Positions 2,519 to 55,899 of a DNA stretch of 57,520 nt are shown piece by piece. The position numbers and the translations under genes were made by a program. Source of the stretch: an uncultured Ignavibacteria bacterium (GTDB lineage Bacteria > Bacteroidota > Ignavibacteria > Tepidaquicellales > Tepidaquicellaceae); the NCBI GenBank assembly GCA_937872315.1, contig CALMST010000158.1, positions 1 to 57,520 on the forward strand. The letters are read 5' to 3'. A model generated the notes under the pieces. It had not been told where the DNA came from. It ran no database searches and saw only the letters and a list, made by a program, of their open reading frames with translations. How positions within the stretch are numbered: position 1 is the first letter of the stretch; each line of letters opens with the position of its first letter.

Positions 2519-4492
2519 ATGAGTTTTAATAAAAAATCAGATAAGATCCCGGATCATTCTTCCGGTAATGAACCTGTTCATAAAGAAGAAGGATCAGTCA
2601 GTAACAGTAAATCCGGAATCTTTTTTTATATTCTGATCATGTTATTACCCTTAGCCGCAGCTTTTTATTACGGTTACAATGCATTCAGGGAAAATGGTTT
2701 TTTAAGCTTTCCGCTTGATGATTCATGGATCCATCTTACATTTGCCAGGAATCTGGCAGAATATTTCAGCTTTTCTTATTTTAAAAATGAAGCTGTGACC
2801 GCAGGTTCGACCTCTCCTTTATATACTATCATTGTTGCGATCGGATTCTTCATCACGGATAATGAGATGATACTGAGTTATGTACTTGGAGTTTCCTTTT
2901 TTGCACTGGCTTCGCTTTACTTTTATAAACTGAATTTAAATGAATACAGGAATGAGATAGTAGTTTGTCTTTTATTCAGTCTTGTGTTTATTTTTGACTA
3001 CTGGATAGTTTTCATTTCACTTTCCGGAATGGAGACAACCCTTTTTATTTTTATGCTGATCCTCGGAGCATATTTATATAAGACTGGAAAGTTGATCCCG
3101 CTTGGCATCGTATCGGGACTTATTTTATGGACTAGACCCGACGGCATTGCGTTCATAGCGGCTGTTATTATTGATATAATTTTCAACCGCTATTTTATAA
3201 AAGACAAAACTAATAAATCATCATATTCTTCTAAAGAAATATATACTGCTTCAGCCATATTTCTTATCATAGCGGGATTATACTTCGGGATGAATCTGTA
3301 TTTATCCGGAACCATACTTCCGAATACTTATAAAGCAAAAGTATATACTAATATAGGCATGGACCAGAGAATAACTTATCTGAAAAACGTTTGGTCATAT
3401 TTTACTGTAGATATTTATAAACTCCTTATGCCGGGATTGATTCTGTCATTAATACTGTTTGTCCGGAAAGTTTTAAAAAGAGAACATTCATCCAATTCAT
3501 TATATATTTTCTTTGTTATATTCTTTCTGTTCATCCATGTAATGAAGATACCTGCTTTTACCAGATTCGGAAGATATCTTATGCCTTTGATTCCTTTTTA
3601 CATTCTGATCTCTCTTTCGGGTTATAAAGAAATTTTCGGAATGCTTTCGGATCATTTTAAAAAAATTCCGGTATTCAGATATGTTATGATAACAGTATTT
3701 GGAGCAGTGATCTCCTTTAATGTATATTACTTTCAGCTTTATAAAAGCATTGTCTCAAGCGAAGATAAATACATATATAACAGACAGGTAAAGACTGCAA
3801 AATGGCTGAACGGTAATACTGAAAAAAGTGATGTGATCGCTGCTCATGATATAGGAGCAATTGGTTATTATTCCGGCAGAAAGATCGTGGATGTTGCCGG
3901 ACTTATCACACCGGAACTGGGTGAGCATCTTAATGACGAAAATTATTCGGATTATATGACGGACTATATGGAAGACAAAGGAGTTACATATACAGCTTTC
4001 CTGAGAGAATGGTATGTAATCAAAAATCAAAAACCAGTATATATGACACCGGGTAATGAAAACAGGGAAGTAATGATAGTTACTAAATTCATTCCGGGTA
4101 AATCTGAAGTGCTGTCGAGAAAGGTAAATTCTCTGATGATGTCAGTAACGGGTTATTTAGAAAAGAAACAGGGAGACAGTATTATATCTCTGATGAATGA
4201 GGTAATAGAAACAGATCCCGAATATTCACTGGCATATTATTACAGATCCTACGGTCATTTAGTTAATTATGAAAACGAAAAATATGAAGCCGATATACTA
4301 AAATCGATAGAGCTTTATCCTGAATTTGCTGAAGCATACCTTAGCTACGGTGGCTATTTAATGGGTATAAGAAATTTTGATAAAGCAAAGGAAGTAATAC
4401 AGAAAGGTCTTGAGATAGATCCATACAATAAATTATTGAAAACAAATCTCAAAGCAATAGAGGATCAGATAAAGGCTCAGGTGCTGAAATGA
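2519..4492 (+). CDS. Polytopic membrane protein, GT-C/PMT-like glycosyltransferase with C-terminal TPR
   Basis: A 657-aa membrane protein. After a short polar N-terminus there is a first membrane segment (about residues 33-50), then the segment PLDDSWIHLTFARNLAEY, an acidic D-D motif in the first periplasmic loop as in GT-C (PMT/ArnT-like) transferases that use polyprenyl-phosphate sugars. About ten hydrophobic helices run to about residue 410. A soluble periplasmic region follows. The C-terminal ~100 residues contain two TPR-like units (SLAYYYRSYGHL and AEAYLSYGGYLM). It stands alone on the plus strand, with the gene at 47-2320 divergent. The GT-C assignment is inference from topology and the D-D loop; donor and acceptor are unknown. 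Start ATG chosen; the upstream ~200 bp is the shared divergent promoter region. Confidence 0.75.
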   Translation: MSFNKKSDKIPDHSSGNEPVHKEEGSVSNSKSGIFFYILIMLLPLAAAFYYGYNAFRENGFLSFPLDDSWIHLTFARNLAEYFSFSYFKNEAVTAGSTSPLYTIIVAIGFFITDNEMILSYVLGVSFFALASLYFYKLNLNEYRNEIVVCLLFSLVFIFDYWIVFISLSGMETTLFIFMLILGAYLYKTGKLIPLGIVSGLILWTRPDGIAFIAAVIIDIIFNRYFIKDKTNKSSYSSKEIYTASAIFLIIAGLYFGMNLYLSGTILPNTYKAKVYTNIGMDQRITYLKNVWSYFTVDIYKLLMPGLILSLILFVRKVLKREHSSNSLYIFFVIFFLFIHVMKIPAFTRFGRYLMPLIPFYILISLSGYKEIFGMLSDHFKKIPVFRYVMITVFGAVISFNVYYFQLYKSIVSSEDKYIYNRQVKTAKWLNGNTEKSDVIAAHDIGAIGYYSGRKIVDVAGLITPELGEHLNDENYSDYMTDYMEDKGVTYTAFLREWYVIKNQKPVYMTPGNENREVMIVTKFIPGKSEVLSRKVNSLMMSVTGYLEKKQGDSIISLMNEVIETDPEYSLAYYYRSYGHLVNYENEKYEADILKSIELYPEFAEAYLSYGGYLMGIRNFDKAKEVIQKGLEIDPYNKLLKTNLKAIEDQIKAQVLK

Positions 4493-4890
4493 TGAAATGT
4501 AATCAGGAAAGATTTTAATCCTGTCTTTTATATTTATTGTTTCTATAGCTGTCCGTCTAATAACAAAACAATTATTTTCCCGCAGATTAACACGGATATT
4601 CACAGATCATCAAAACAATTTAATTTGCAGGAATATATGATTCATGATAATATATGCTTGTTCGCGGCAGGAAAGTTGTCAATCAGTTGCTGTTGATCAT
4701 AAGCGGTCAACTTAAGTTAAGCTAAAATTATATTTTTCAGGATTAGGAACAGCTTTAATATGCAACAAACTGCAATGTCCCCGGAAGTTAAATAAAACTC
4801 TGAATCCATTCAGAAGTCAATTTCAATAAACATATCAATTAGGTATTTTAACCCAACTCAAAAATTTAAACACAGGAGAAAACTAACTAA
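4493..4890. other. Intergenic region upstream of aldehyde dehydrogenase
   Basis: About 400 bp without a supportable gene. It holds a short imperfect inverted repeat just after the GT-C gene (aatcaggaaaga ... tcctgtctt, about 4501-4528), which could act as a terminator, and an AT-rich stretch ahead of the next start. A purine-rich AGGAG at about 4874 precedes the ATG at 4891 at somewhat long spacing. Nothing else is seen. Confidence 0.4.
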
Positions 4891-7054: not shown

Positions 7055-7795
7055 ATGAAAAAACTTTTTTCAATATTCACATTCGTTTTTATAATCGGTC
7101 TTTCTGACGGGTTTTCACAGCTGGATCCAAAGGAACAGCTTCAGGAAGGAATTGCTTCTTTTAACGGCAGGGAATATCAGGAAGCTGTTAATTATCTTAC
7201 AAATTATCTCAATACGGTGGCTGATGATAAAACGGCCATGACCTATCGCGCCTATGCATATTATTATCTGGGTAATTACAGAGATGCTTTAGAGGATGCG
7301 ACCAATGCCATTGCAAATGATAACACATACGCATTATCTCATAACGTAAGGGGATTGATTTACACAGCTATGAACAATTATCCCGAAGCCATAAATGATT
7401 TTACTGAAGCAATATTTGACCAGCCGGATCTGGCTGAGGCATACATGAACAGGGGACTTGTATATAAATCTATGAAAGAATATTCTCAAGCGGTTACTGA
7501 TCTTTCCAGCGCAATAGATCTTAATAATACATTGCTCGAAGCATATTATTACAGAGGTGAAATAGAAGTGTATATGGGAAATTATGATGCGGCAATTAAA
7601 GACCTGAATATAGTGCTGATGAACCGATCAAATGACGCAGCTTCACTTGCTGCACGAGGTCTTGCATTATATCAGACAAAACAATACAAAAAGGCTGCTG
7701 AAGATCTTGAAAATGCAATAAGTATTAATCCGGAACTTAAACAGGATTATGAAACAATACTTGAAGATGCAAAACGCCAGGCAGCAGAAAAATAA
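7055..7795 (+). CDS. Exported tetratricopeptide repeat protein
   Basis: A 246-aa protein with a Sec signal peptide (MKKLFSIFTFVFIIGLSDGF, cleaved near residue 21) followed by about six consecutive TPR units of ~34 residues covering nearly all the mature chain. Typical TPR positions are visible in AYAYYYLGNYRDALEDATNA, AYMNRGLVYKSMKEYSQAVT and AYYYRGEIEVYMGNYDAAIK. It is probably a periplasmic protein-protein interaction scaffold; the partner is unknown. Its 3' end overlaps the zinc-ribbon ORF by 47 bp in another frame. Fragments of a second copy lie just upstream at 6517-6890, so this locus was once tandemly duplicated. Confidence 0.88.
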   Translation: MKKLFSIFTFVFIIGLSDGFSQLDPKEQLQEGIASFNGREYQEAVNYLTNYLNTVADDKTAMTYRAYAYYYLGNYRDALEDATNAIANDNTYALSHNVRGLIYTAMNNYPEAINDFTEAIFDQPDLAEAYMNRGLVYKSMKEYSQAVTDLSSAIDLNNTLLEAYYYRGEIEVYMGNYDAAIKDLNIVLMNRSNDAASLAARGLALYQTKQYKKAAEDLENAISINPELKQDYETILEDAKRQAAEK

Positions 7796-50436: not shown

Positions 50437-50527
50437 AGAGGGCGAGACTCTCAGACATTTTCCAGGCACGGAATTTTATCAAAGATTAATCTTATAAAAA
50501 TAAGATTTGTCTTGCCCTCTGTTTTTA
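50437..50527 (+). terminator. Long-stem terminator after micro-ORF 2
   Basis: AGAGGGCGAGAC (50437-50448) pairs with GTCTTGCCCTCT (50509-50520, one G-T pair), then GTTTTTATT. A TTG that could open the next gene's frame (50512) lies inside this stem, so that start is unlikely. Confidence 0.75.
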
Positions 50528-50568
50528 TTATAAAAAAAATTATACTAAAAAACTTAAAAAATACTAAA

Positions 50569-52671
50569 ATGAAAAGTCTAAAAAATATCACTTTAGCTCT
50601 TTTGATTTCATTGATCTTTCAAACATCTTTGTTTGCAGATAATGATTGTCCAATGTCCGAATGGTATCCGAATTTGGATATTCCATCGGATTTTACAGGT
50701 GGATTATATAAGCCATTCAGAACAGATTCGGCAGGAGGTCAGGCACTACCTACGACAGCTTCATTTAATGTTTTAATTGTATTTGTTCAATTTCCCGATG
50801 AAAACTCATTAACAGATAACTCCTATTGGCCCATTGGACAGCCGCCGGTAATTATAGATAGTCTCTTAGCTCCAGCAAGAAATAATTCCGGTGCTTTCTG
50901 GAACAGGTACAATGAATCATCTCAACGACTTTCAGATTATTATCAGGAAGTTAGTCGAGGACAGTTTCACATGACAGGAATAACACGACATTACATTTTT
51001 GATCACAACAGAAGTTATTATAATGGAAATGCAACTTTAATGAACAATGAAGTTTACACAAAATTAAAAGCAGATACGGCAATTCAATGGCCAAATTTTG
51101 ACAAATGGCATTACCTATCTTCTGGAAATTTCAGCTATCAGGGAGACGGTCACTTAGATATGCTGATGATGGTAAGAAGAACAAATCCCGGTCATGCAGG
51201 ATTTGCATTATTAGATGGTTCTGAGTTTGAGATAGATCCGAATAATGAAATATGGATTAGAACTGGATTTTATGGAAATGGCTCGGGATTAGTAATACTA
51301 GGAAATTTAGGAAATCCTGTTCAACCTCATTCATATAATAGGTTTTTAGGAATATTAATCCATGAATATGGACATTACTTATACGGACCACATTCATCAA
51401 TTGGTATAATGACATCACGCGGAGGTAATTCAATACACGATTTATTCTATAGTCCTTTTGAAAAATATAAACTTGGATATATAGAACCAACTCTTGTTAA
51501 TTTTTCACAACAGAGTTCTTATTCAATTAATGATATTTCAAGCAGAACATCTAATAACAATGTTCTTAAAGTGCCAATTTCATCAAACGAATACTTCTTG
51601 ATTGAAAACCGCAGAAAGGTTTCAAAATGGGATGTAAAAATGCTTGGAGATACAGCTCATCTTGATATGTTCAGAAATACTTCAAACTATGGAAAAGGTG
51701 TTTATATATATCATCATAGGTCTACTGATTTGGGTTATCCAGGAGATCAGGACCAGGAGTGTGCTGATGGAATATGGAATTGGGTTGAGTCGGGTTCAGC
51801 AATTCCTGACTGGACTTCATCGGGATCTATACCTTTAATAAAAAGAACTTCTTTAGCTTATCCGGTTAATAATGATAACGGATTGTGGGGTAATCTAAAT
51901 AATAAAGATGGTATCTCTGTAAACTCTTTAGTTGGAGGAAATTATGGTGTCGGTGTGTATTTTAGCAGTGGAAATAGTAATGATACTATTGGTCGGACAG
52001 GTACGGATAAAATTTTTACAAACGAGGAAAGTTTATGGACTTCAAGAGAGCAGTTTGGAGACAGATATGATGCATGGAATATAGGATACAATCAGATCTT
52101 TTCACCTTATTCAAATCCAAATACTAAAGATTGGTTAGATGATAGTACAGGTATTTTTATTTATTACGAATCCTTAACCAGCGAAGTAGCAAACCTAAAA
52201 ATATACAAAACAGGATCAGGATATTCGGAAAATGAAATTCTTGCTGTTACTCCTCCTTCAAGACCAATGGGAATTAATTTGCAAAATTACTTTCCAAAAA
52301 ATTCAAATTTTTGTCATCCAAAGATTGTCTGGAATCATAATACAGAACCGGACATGACAAGAACAAATGATACGAAAAGATATAAAATATTCAGGGCCAA
52401 GCAACCAAATATGAATTCAGTACCAAATAATTATTTATATTTAGGTTATAAAGATGTTCATAAAGATTCAATTCCATCATACGTTGATCTTACAATAAAC
52501 AAGTATGATTGCGGTGCAGAACCTGAACCAACCTCTGAACTATTTCCTGTAAGATATTATGTGAGAGCAGTTGATAAATTTGATGATGAATCCGTTCCTT
52601 CGGATTTTGTCCAGACAATAGGAATATCGGGAGGACCACCAGTAGAAGATAATTTTGGAAATACAACTTAG
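50569..52671 (+). CDS. M6-like (immune-inhibitor A type) secreted metalloprotease, cut from its T9SS tail by TAG
   Basis: About 700 aa from ATG 50569 (signal peptide MKSLKNITLALLISLIFQTS). The zinc motif HEYGHYLYGPH begins near residue 265, in a region (FVQFPDENSL...ILIHEYGHYLYG) like M6 family peptidases. The C-terminal beta domain (QDQECADGIWNW, TPPSRPMGIN) matches the truncated copy at 41249. The frame stops at TAG 52669-52671 (FGNTT-stop) and then continues in the same frame as a complete T9SS sorting domain to 52950. The truncated copy has no stop at that point. As read, the protein would be exported to the periplasm but not T9SS-sorted. Confidence 0.85.
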   Translation: MKSLKNITLALLISLIFQTSLFADNDCPMSEWYPNLDIPSDFTGGLYKPFRTDSAGGQALPTTASFNVLIVFVQFPDENSLTDNSYWPIGQPPVIIDSLLAPARNNSGAFWNRYNESSQRLSDYYQEVSRGQFHMTGITRHYIFDHNRSYYNGNATLMNNEVYTKLKADTAIQWPNFDKWHYLSSGNFSYQGDGHLDMLMMVRRTNPGHAGFALLDGSEFEIDPNNEIWIRTGFYGNGSGLVILGNLGNPVQPHSYNRFLGILIHEYGHYLYGPHSSIGIMTSRGGNSIHDLFYSPFEKYKLGYIEPTLVNFSQQSSYSINDISSRTSNNNVLKVPISSNEYFLIENRRKVSKWDVKMLGDTAHLDMFRNTSNYGKGVYIYHHRSTDLGYPGDQDQECADGIWNWVESGSAIPDWTSSGSIPLIKRTSLAYPVNNDNGLWGNLNNKDGISVNSLVGGNYGVGVYFSSGNSNDTIGRTGTDKIFTNEESLWTSREQFGDRYDAWNIGYNQIFSPYSNPNTKDWLDDSTGIFIYYESLTSEVANLKIYKTGSGYSENEILAVTPPSRPMGINLQNYFPKNSNFCHPKIVWNHNTEPDMTRTNDTKRYKIFRAKQPNMNSVPNNYLYLGYKDVHKDSIPSYVDLTINKYDCGAEPEPTSELFPVRYYVRAVDKFDDESVPSDFVQTIGISGGPPVEDNFGNTT

Positions 52672-53034: not shown

Positions 53035-53101
53035 AATTATACTGAATCCTATCAACTGATAGATGTATTGTATACAAAAATCTTACACCAAAATTTAACT
53101 T

Positions 53102-53262
53102 AGTACACGTCTATAAACAAATAAGTCAAGTATATACCTTTCCCCACAAAAAAAATTTTATTTTTTTTGCTACTTGATGATGGGGCTCACTTTCGGTCTC
53201 AATATAGAGAACATTTTATTTAACAGGGTAATATCTTTGTGATCTTTCTTTACTTCTTTTAC
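53102..53262 (+). repeat. 161-bp inverted repeat, left arm
   Basis: Runs from AGTACACGTC to CTTCTTTTAC. Reverse complement of 54548-54708 at every base compared, including the A8-T4-A-T8 tract. Confidence 0.92.
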
Positions 53263-53329
53263 TAAGTTATTTTTTAAATTATACGTCTATTTGTACCTTT
53301 AAGGTAATAGTAAATTTTTAATTTTAAAT

Positions 53330-53395
53330 GAGAAGTGGTTAACCGACAAATTGGCTCTCATAAAGGAGCAACGTGTACATTGAACCTATCTTCTC
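53330..53395 (-). ncRNA. Candidate structured RNA downstream of transposase (possible bridge RNA)
   Basis: Plus-strand view: GAGAAG(T)GGTT pairs with AACC...CTTCTC enclosing an inner TTGGCTC/GAGCAA stem-loop. It lies in the noncoding part of the IS110 element, 60 bp past the transposase stop. IS110/IS1111 elements encode a bridge RNA in their noncoding ends; position and pairing fit, but guide loops were not identified. Strand assumed to be that of the transposase. Confidence 0.35.
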
Positions 53396-53455
53396 TTAAT
53401 TTCAGATCACTTTTTATTAAAATGTTTTTTAATTTCTGGTAGTTTTATCCCTGTT

Positions 53456-54469
53456 TTATTTTATTATATTTTCCCTCCATTGATATGGCCGGTAATCTGT
53501 TCCATTTTTCAATACTGCATAACTTACCTTTGCAATGTATCTGGTTATTTTGTTTTGTGCATGTTCACAACTGTAGCCATTCTGTAATAAGTATTCATAA
53601 TATTCACGTATGTCATTCTTTCCTCTTAAAGCTGCTTTAGTTGCTGTCTTGTAATGTTTCTTTAATAATTTATTGTGCCTTATCCGCTTTTTACCATAAC
53701 TTCTTCCTCCGCTGTCTTTCTGATGTTCCGCTAATCCGCAATATGCATAGTATTTATATTTGTTAGCAAATCTGGACGCATCTATTATCGTTGCAAATAT
53801 TCCTACCGATATTATTAATCCAATTCCAGATATTTTATCTAACTGCCTTATTACTTTGTTTTCTTTTCGTATCTTTATAAATACATCTTCAAACTCTTTC
53901 TTTGTTTGTGAAAAATGTTCTATTACTAAATTCTGCTTCAGTGTAATAAACTTCGTAAGTTCACTTTTTGATTGCAATTTCTCTTTCTTATGATCTTTTC
54001 CTTCAGCTCTGAATATTGCTGAACGCTGGTTCTGGATTCTGACGGATGAATTTACAAAATCTTCATATGTACTTACTAACTTTCGTATCTCATATGTTTT
54101 GTCCATGCTATGAAAGACTTCCTTTAACATACCACTTCTCAATAAAAAACAAAGTTTACCGGCATCATGCTTATCTGTCTTTGGACCTTCCTTTAGCAAA
54201 CTATTTCGATATGCATCACATATGATTATTTTATCTACGTGATCTTTTAACTCTACGTATAACCAGTGACTCGTTGTGGTTTCTTCTATTGTCAATATTT
54301 TTTTACCCTGACGTGATTTCAGATATTGCTTCATTATCTTTAGATCAGGTAAAATTGTGGTATGCTCAGGTTCAACACTTGTATCGCGCATTGATGCGAT
54401 AGCTACAATTTCCTGCGACCAATCTACTGCAATGTAGTGTTTATAAATTTCATTTTTTGTAATTTTCAT
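53456..54469 (-). CDS. IS110-family transposase (DEDD/serine recombinase)
   Basis: A 337-aa, apparently intact RNA-guided recombinase. The RuvC-like DEDD domain has the first Asp in YIAVDWSQ, the Glu in LTIEETTTSHW, and later Asp residues in KTDKHDAGKLC. The C-terminal Tnp domain has the SGIGLIISVGIFATI hairpin region and YAYCGLAEHQKDSGGRS, where the Ser is the expected catalytic nucleophile. ATG at 54469, with a purine-rich AAGGA upstream. Length is normal for the family. No frameshift, so the element may still move. Confidence 0.95.
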   Translation of the reverse strand: MKITKNEIYKHYIAVDWSQEIVAIASMRDTSVEPEHTTILPDLKIMKQYLKSRQGKKILTIEETTTSHWLYVELKDHVDKIIICDAYRNSLLKEGPKTDKHDAGKLCFLLRSGMLKEVFHSMDKTYEIRKLVSTYEDFVNSSVRIQNQRSAIFRAEGKDHKKEKLQSKSELTKFITLKQNLVIEHFSQTKKEFEDVFIKIRKENKVIRQLDKISGIGLIISVGIFATIIDASRFANKYKYYAYCGLAEHQKDSGGRSYGKKRIRHNKLLKKHYKTATKAALRGKNDIREYYEYLLQNGYSCEHAQNKITRYIAKVSYAVLKNGTDYRPYQWRENIIK

Positions 54470-54504
54470 TTTAGGGTTCCTTTCATTTTTGAAGTTCTAT
54501 TTTC

Positions 54505-54521
54505 TACCAATTTAATTGGTA
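54505..54521. repeat. Perfect palindrome in transposase 5' region
   Basis: TACCAAT-TTA-ATTGGTA, 7-bp arms, 36 bp upstream of the transposase start. It could be a promoter operator or part of the left-end noncoding RNA. Confidence 0.6.
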
Positions 54522-54547
54522 CTAACTCTTAATGAAAGTGAGCCCTT

Positions 54548-54708
54548 GTAAAAGAAGTAAAGAAAGATCACAAAGATATTACCCTGTTAAATAAAATGTT
54601 CTCTATATTGAGACCGAAAGTGAGCCCCATCATCAAGTAGCAAAAAAAATAAAATTTTTTTTGTGGGGAAAGGTATATACTTGACTTATTTGTTTATAGA
54701 CGTGTACT
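54548..54708 (-). repeat. 161-bp inverted repeat, right arm
   Basis: Reverse complement of 53102-53262. The 12-base word GAAAGTGAGCCC occurs within it (54616-54627) and again just inside the arm (54534-54545). Confidence 0.92.
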
Positions 54709-54789
54709 TAGATCAACCAATCAACACTCAAATCTAACTTTCAATAATCATCCATTAACTTTATTTTGAATAAAAATTTAAAATCATAC

Positions 54790-55899
54790 ATGAAAAAGCC
54801 ATACCCTCCAATATATTATTCCGATTATCTCCAGCTTGAAAAATTACTGACCAGCCAGCATCCAAAGAGTGATGAATACGGCCATCATGCTCACGATGAA
54901 ATGCTTTTTATTATTATTCACCAGGCATATGAACTCTGGTTCAAGCAGATCATACATGAACTTCTGTCAGTAAATGAAATGTTTCAGCATGATAATATTG
55001 ATGAAAAGAATATTGGAATTGCAATTTCCCGTCTAAGGAGAATTACCGTAATTCAGAAAGTTCTGATCGAACAGCTCAATGTCATAGAAACAATGACACC
55101 TCTGGATTTTCTTGAATTCAGGGATTTTCTGATCCCGGCTTCAGGATTTCAGAGCTATCAGTTCAGGATTATTGAAAACATGCTTGGATTAAATATTGAA
55201 AACAGGGTAAAGCTTGATAATAAGAATTACTATTCACTTGTATCTGATGAACATCAGAAGATGCTGCTCGAATCCCAGGATTCCGTTTCAATTTTTCAGG
55301 CAGTTGATAAATGGCTTTCAAGAATGCCTTTTATGAAGATAGAGAATTTTAATTTCTGGGAATATTATAAAAAGGCAATAATGGAAATGTCCGATGAAGA
55401 AAAAGAAATTATTATGAACAATCCGAGTCTTACGGATGAAAAACGTGAAAACCAACTGAAGATGTCTGAAGCAACCAGGGAAAAATATGTTGCTCTTCTC
55501 GATGAGGAAAAGCATAACGAACTCATGAAAAAAGGTGAAAGGAGTCTTTCATACCACGCAACTCTTGCGGCTTTATTTATTAATCTTTACAGAGATGAAC
55601 CGATACTTCATCTTCCATTCAGATTCCTGACTTATCTTGTTGACATAGACGAGAATTTTACCACATGGAGATACAAACACGCTCTGATGGTTCACAGAAT
55701 GATCGGAGCAAAAGTAGGAACTGGCGGATCTTCGGGGCATCATTATCTGATGCAGACTGCGGAGAAGCATAAAGTATTCAAGGATCTGTTTGATCTTCCG
55801 ACTTATCTGATACCAAGGTCAGCTTTACCGGAATTGCCGGAGGAGTTGAAGCTTAAACTTGGTTTTAGTTATGGATTGAATTTAGATGATTTAAAGTAA
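54790..55899 (+). CDS. kynA: Tryptophan 2,3-dioxygenase
   Basis: Heme enzyme converting L-tryptophan to N-formylkynurenine, the first step of the kynurenine pathway. About 369 aa from ATG 54790 (MKKPYPPIYYSDYLQLEKLL); an in-frame TTG at 54766 would add eight residues. The active-site His lies in HHAHDEMLFII, substrate-binding residues in HQAYELWFKQ and FRDFLIPASGFQSYQFR, the heme-ligand His in TWRYKHALMVHR, and the tryptophan-binding GTGGSSGHHYL motif is present. The IS110 right arm ends 82 bp upstream, so its promoter may have been altered by the insertion. Confidence 0.95.
   Translation: MKKPYPPIYYSDYLQLEKLLTSQHPKSDEYGHHAHDEMLFIIIHQAYELWFKQIIHELLSVNEMFQHDNIDEKNIGIAISRLRRITVIQKVLIEQLNVIETMTPLDFLEFRDFLIPASGFQSYQFRIIENMLGLNIENRVKLDNKNYYSLVSDEHQKMLLESQDSVSIFQAVDKWLSRMPFMKIENFNFWEYYKKAIMEMSDEEKEIIMNNPSLTDEKRENQLKMSEATREKYVALLDEEKHNELMKKGERSLSYHATLAALFINLYRDEPILHLPFRFLTYLVDIDENFTTWRYKHALMVHRMIGAKVGTGGSSGHHYLMQTAEKHKVFKDLFDLPTYLIPRSALPELPEELKLKLGFSYGLNLDDLK

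What the first reader, a model, noticed from the sequence alone, without database searches (positions are those of the whole stretch)
53102..54708. IS110 element bounded by 161-bp perfect inverted repeats and a TTA direct repeat
Both arms (53102-53262 and 54548-54708) are exact reverse complements over 161 bp, and TTA flanks the outer GTACACG ends. IS110 elements are known for lacking long terminal inverted repeats and target duplications. The simplest models are: (a) the IS inserted at the dyad of a separate long palindromic (MITE-like) element with a 3-bp target duplication; IS110/IS1111 members favour palindromes; or (b) one noncoding end was duplicated in inverse orientation, giving a new unit that may mobilise differently. 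Zero mismatches imply the event is recent or the arms are homogenised.
Basis: partly seen in the sequence, partly recalled or inferred. Interest (0 to 1): 0.75.

Follow-up and report, generated by a model that had tools for sequence, protein, structure and literature searches.

The report
Transposon fusion with two right ends
A common kind of RNA-guided bacterial jumping gene (IS110/IS1111 type) has lost its left tip and carries instead a backwards copy of its own right tip, most likely because two oppositely facing copies fused by a deletion that also removed the gene between them; it is a genomic scar, not a new kind of element.

Summary
In detail: 53103-53262 and 54548-54707 are exact reverse complements (160 bp, 161 with the adjoining A/T pair), and TTA lies outside each.

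The arms are not a MITE. In 15 related elements, each with one left and one right end (one present as four identical copies in a single-contig genome), the left arm's sequence is the element's native 3' (right) end. In the window the left end has lost its outer ~15 bp. An inverted 153-bp copy of the right end plus 7 bp of target abuts the cut.

The element is IS1111-like: DEDD/Tnp_20 recombinase and a downstream noncoding region with a covarying fold. Its guide loop is complementary to the target beside the right end (7-10 of 10 nt across 16 elements; 0 of 100,000 shuffled pairings as good). Both arms are flanked by the same guide-matched 7-mer; TTA is not a target duplication.

thpR, which lies at this place in the nearest relative, is missing from the whole genome. 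Best model: two guided insertions in opposite orientation, then a deletion that removed thpR and most of copy 2. The remaining unit keeps its recombinase and guide RNA but should not move in cis. Template switching is the main rival. Reads were not available.

The parts
53100..53102 (.). left TTA; ordinary flanking DNA, not a target duplication
53103..53109 (.). target half-site GTACACG beside the native right end, complementary to the guide in the RNA
53110..53262 (-). left arm: terminal 153 bp of the native right (3') end of the IS
   Evidence: same sequence is the RE of relatives
53281..53412 (-). predicted seekRNA/bridge-type RNA in the 3' noncoding region; target guide GTACACG at 53372-53378
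   Evidence: covarying structure; guide position
53456..54469 (-). IS110-family recombinase, 337 aa, intact
54470..54547 (-). inner part of the left end (LE); its outer ~15 bp, present in relatives, are missing
   Evidence: LE profile begins at position 16 here, 1-4 in all relatives
54548..54700 (+). right arm: inverted second copy of the terminal 153 bp of the right end
   Evidence: RE profile 196-356 on the opposite strand; identical to the left arm
54701..54707 (.). second guide-matched target half-site CGTGTAC
54708..54710 (.). right TTA; ordinary flanking DNA
54790..55899 (+). tryptophan 2,3-dioxygenase; in the nearest relatives its divergent neighbour is thpR, absent here

Best explanation
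The unit is an IS1111-like, RNA-guided IS110-family element whose left tip is missing and replaced by an inverted copy of its own right end (SHOWN by comparison). Most likely two copies of the same IS inserted in opposite orientation at two nearby targets bearing the guide-matched 7-mer, one on each side of thpR. A deletion with 2-bp (AC) overlap then removed the tip of copy 1's left end, thpR, and all of copy 2 except its last 153 bp of right end (INFERRED). The 'terminal inverted repeats' are therefore two right ends of two copies. The remaining unit should still make recombinase and guide RNA, but with no LE it should not form the circular intermediate in cis (INFERRED from PMC11187229 and PMC11208160).
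For: In 15 relatives there is exactly one LE (profile starting at 1-4) and one RE, never an inverted RE; the window alone has an extra RE on the opposite strand abutting an LE cut at position 16. Four identical copies in a single-contig genome fix the ends. Each arm is followed by the guide-matched 7-mer and the flanks diverge one base further out, as two separate guided insertions would give. thpR lies at this place in the nearest relative, beside the dioxygenase gene in two others, and occurs in 23 of 30 genomes searched but nowhere in this genome. Arms with zero mismatches fit recent copies. Other copies of related IS in this genome and relatives are also cut by deletions, leaving LE fragments.
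Against: The ancestral state (two IS copies facing each other around thpR) was not seen in any genome. thpR is also absent from several other relatives (for example G013, G015), so its loss could be unrelated. The intergenic targets are not conserved in G002, so no empty site could be aligned. Two guided insertions close together in inverse orientation is an extra event to assume.
Confidence: 0.6

Rival explanations
1. Template switching in one copy. The IS sat in a near-palindromic target (CTAAGTACACGTGTACTAAG, 9 of 10 pairs). During replication or repair the growing strand switched from the right half-site to the identical left half-site, copied 153 bp of RE, and switched back at 'AC' into the LE.
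For: The flanks joined at their shared bases make a near palindrome, and the outer 7-8 bp are shared. The inner joint has 2-bp overlap. Only one IS insertion is needed.
Against: Does not explain the loss of thpR from the same interval. The outer limit of the duplication falls within one base of the guide-matched target, which template switching need not give. The palindrome is reconstructed, not observed, and is not found elsewhere in the genome with up to 3 mismatches.
Confidence: 0.27
2. Assembly or library artefact: a fold-back or chimeric join, with a normal LE in the real genome.
For: Draft metagenome-type assembly in 386 contigs; no reads available to test.
Against: The right flank is unique, syntenic with G002 over 2.8 kb, and differs from the left flank one base past the half-site; a fold-back would copy the left flank. 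A 2-bp join cannot arise in a k-mer graph. No contig carries a normal LE of this copy, or thpR.
Confidence: 0.1
3. The IS inserted at the centre of a separate 320-bp palindromic MITE with TTA target duplication.
For: Symmetric appearance and flanking TTA.
Against: The arm is the native RE in the relatives, contiguous with the gene. No arm without transposase was found. The bases next to TTA are the guide-matched target.
Confidence: 0.01

Closest known systems
IS1111 group of the IS110 family (seekRNA/bridge-RNA-guided; PMC11187229, PMC11208160)
   Same: DEDD plus Tnp_20 recombinase, long noncoding region downstream of the gene, structured RNA with a target guide that matches the flanking target, short LE and long RE
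   Different: This copy has no LE tip and two REs; subterminal repeats in relatives are about 9 bp rather than the usual 11-13
IS621 (IS110 group; PDB 8wt6)
   Same: Homologous recombinase
   Different: IS110-group elements such as IS621 carry the guide RNA upstream of the gene (per PMC11208160); here it is downstream
MITEs and fold-back elements
   Same: Long inverted repeats
   Different: The arms are one end of the IS, duplicated; no solo copies found

Membership tests
IS110 family | DEDD_Tnp_IS110 (PF01548) and Transposase_20 (PF02371) domains | tested here: met
   both above gathering cut-off; conserved D, E, DxxD and SG positions in the alignment of relatives; the NCBIfam equivalog score (115.5) is below its cut-off of 140
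IS1111 group | longer noncoding region downstream of the transposase | tested here: met
   about 346 nt from stop codon to RE end; relatives have only about 90-120 nt upstream of the gene
IS1111 group | noncoding RNA whose guide pairs with the target | tested here: met
   covarying fold and cognate guide-flank complementarity, 0 of 100,000 permutations as good; expression not tested
IS1111 group | subterminal inverted repeats, usually 11-13 bp, with 7-bp left and 3-bp right extensions (PMC11187229) | tested here: inconclusive
   closest relatives read TCGGTAA-ATTAACAAA ... TTTGTTAAT-AGA: 7 and 3 bp extensions but a 9-bp repeat (sequences); this copy lacks the left one
IS1111 group | excision as a circle and insertion at the RNA-specified site | not testable with these tools
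   needs experiment; predicted to fail for this copy
MITE | arms occurring as non-autonomous copies without transposase | tested here: not met
   no arm-only copy in the own genome or the 59 genomes searched

The most novel reading that the evidence does not exclude
The double-RE unit is a functional new form: with identical right ends, each beside a guide-matched half-site, the recombinase could act on both ends and flip or mobilise the unit without an LE.
Probability: 0.03. Interest if true: 0.6.

Novelty: new member of a known kind. Interest (0 to 1): 0.25.

Why it matters
It shows that long terminal inverted repeats on an IS110-type element need not be a new transposon architecture: they can be a scar of two guided insertions and a deletion. 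The relatives assembled here also give a natural demonstration, in draft genomes of this bacterial class, that the target guide in the 3' noncoding RNA changes together with the insertion site.

Tried and rejected
MITE/palindrome host: rejected, because the arms are native RE. TTA as target duplication: rejected, because the bases between TTA and RE are the guide-matched target, and relatives show no TTA pair at their ends. Rfam scan of the element: no match. Viral contigs: no relatives. Search for the reconstructed palindromic target elsewhere in the genome with up to 3 mismatches: none. Empty site in the same-genus genome G002: synteny found, but the intergenic target is not conserved. Literature searches found no description of an IS110-type element with two right ends; this is weak evidence, as the library is incomplete.

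Full report
Observation. The two arms are exactly as reported: 53103-53262 and 54548-54707 are perfect reverse complements (160 bp; 161 counting the A/T pair at 53102/54708), with TTA outside each. The minus-strand ORF 53456-54469 is an IS110-family recombinase. In the own draft genome (4.56 Mb, 386 contigs, 96% complete) no other copy of arm or transposase was found.

What the arms are. DNA and protein searches in relatives gave 15 further elements in which both ends can be read. Their left end (LE) is short and begins GTCGGTAAATTAACAAAGGGCTCAC... in the closest ones. Their right end (RE) is long and finishes ...CTTGACTTATTTGTTAATAGA before the target. Four identical copies in a single-contig genome (G198) are the same over 1,577 bp and then diverge, which fixes the ends independently. 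Profiles of LE and RE were searched on both strands of all 16 elements. Each relative has one LE, starting at profile position 1-4, and one RE downstream of the gene. Only the window has an LE that starts at position 16 and an additional RE (positions 196-356) on the opposite strand directly abutting it. So the left arm is the native RE, and the right arm is a second RE, inverted, that took the place of the outer LE.

The RNA and the target. The 3' noncoding region (53281-53412) folds into a conserved structure: 26 pairs, 90% of cells paired, 11 pairs with changes on both sides against 4.9 in shuffles and 0-4 when slid. Its first loop carries a variable stretch that is complementary to the bases just outside the RE. 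In the window the guide is ATGTACACG and the flank CGTGTAC. In relatives the guides differ (for example CGGGAATG, AACACCAACA, AACGGCGTT, AAAACCTCTG) and match their own flanks. The mean best match is 8.3 of 10 for cognate pairs and 6.7 for non-cognate pairs; none of 100,000 permutations does as well, also for a set of 12 from which four elements with repeated guides were dropped. This agrees with the seekRNA/bridge RNA described for IS1111-group elements (PMC11187229, PMC11208160). The RNA lies wholly outside the arms, so the right arm carries no second guide. The TTA is therefore not a target duplication: the target begins at GTACACG, inside the TTA.

How it arose. The right arm is 153 bp of RE plus the same 7-bp half-site; one base further out the two flanks diverge (left ...AACTTAGTACACG, right CGTGTACTTAGATC...). 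The inner joint reads CTTCTTTTAC|AAGGGCTC, where RE and LE share 'AC'. In the same-genus genome G002 the same interval, from a gene ending in a matching T9SS sorting domain (84% identical, against 46% for the next paralogue) to tryptophan dioxygenase, slipin and NfeD, contains thpR (LigT phosphoesterase, PF02834). thpR is divergent to the dioxygenase gene in G002, G014 and G010. thpR is found in 23 of 30 genomes searched but nowhere in the window's genome. Two oppositely oriented copies on either side of thpR, followed by one deletion, account for the two REs, the guide-matched flanks on both sides, the lost LE tip, the lost gene and the perfect identity of the arms. Template switching within a palindromic target accounts for all of these except the lost gene and remains the main rival. 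thpR loss by itself is not rare in the family, so the preference is moderate.

What it does now. Recombinase and guide RNA look intact. Published work on IS1111 members shows that the circular intermediate joins LE and RE and needs target on both sides (PMC11187229). Without an LE the unit should be stuck, though it could act in trans. This is inference.

Artefact. Reads were not available. The right flank is unique, syntenic with G002, and differs from the left flank at the second base past the 7-mer. A fold-back artefact would not give that, and a 2-bp joint is too short for an assembly-graph mis-join. Some risk remains.

Novelty. A new member of a known group, in a rearranged state; the rearrangement itself looks like ordinary IS decay. 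No paper on such a double-RE IS110 element was found in three searches, but the library is incomplete.

Noticed in passing
L049 (G000:C14) 4193-4842 and 7692-7749; L050 (G000:C178) 1708-1825; also L046, L047, L052: LE-only fragments of related IS elements, mostly beside (C)CGCC; in L049 the fragments run straight into a repeated unit that begins with the IS target (CCCGCCGTTGTTG...), in about four copies of roughly 300 bp. The LE pieces have different lengths and no RE; how they arose is unclear.
   Followed up: partly
52669-52671: In-frame TAG separates a 719-aa protein (50512-52671, no Pfam match) from the T9SS sorting domain that follows in the same frame (to 52950); either a nonsense mutation or a sequencing error.
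   Followed up: no
window 53281-53412 and the LE of relatives: A second motif of the predicted RNA (GTCGGTTAACC and variants) resembles each element's own LE start plus a few bases of left flank (for example L032 CTCGG, G198 ATCCGCGAT, G245 TCTTGGCGG), as expected for a donor/left-target guide; not tested statistically.
   Followed up: partly
53183-53194 and 54534-54545: A 12-bp perfect inverted repeat (GGGCTCACTTTC) inside the two true ends, about 17 bp from the LE tip and 72 bp from the RE tip; perhaps a recombinase or RNA-processing site.
   Followed up: no
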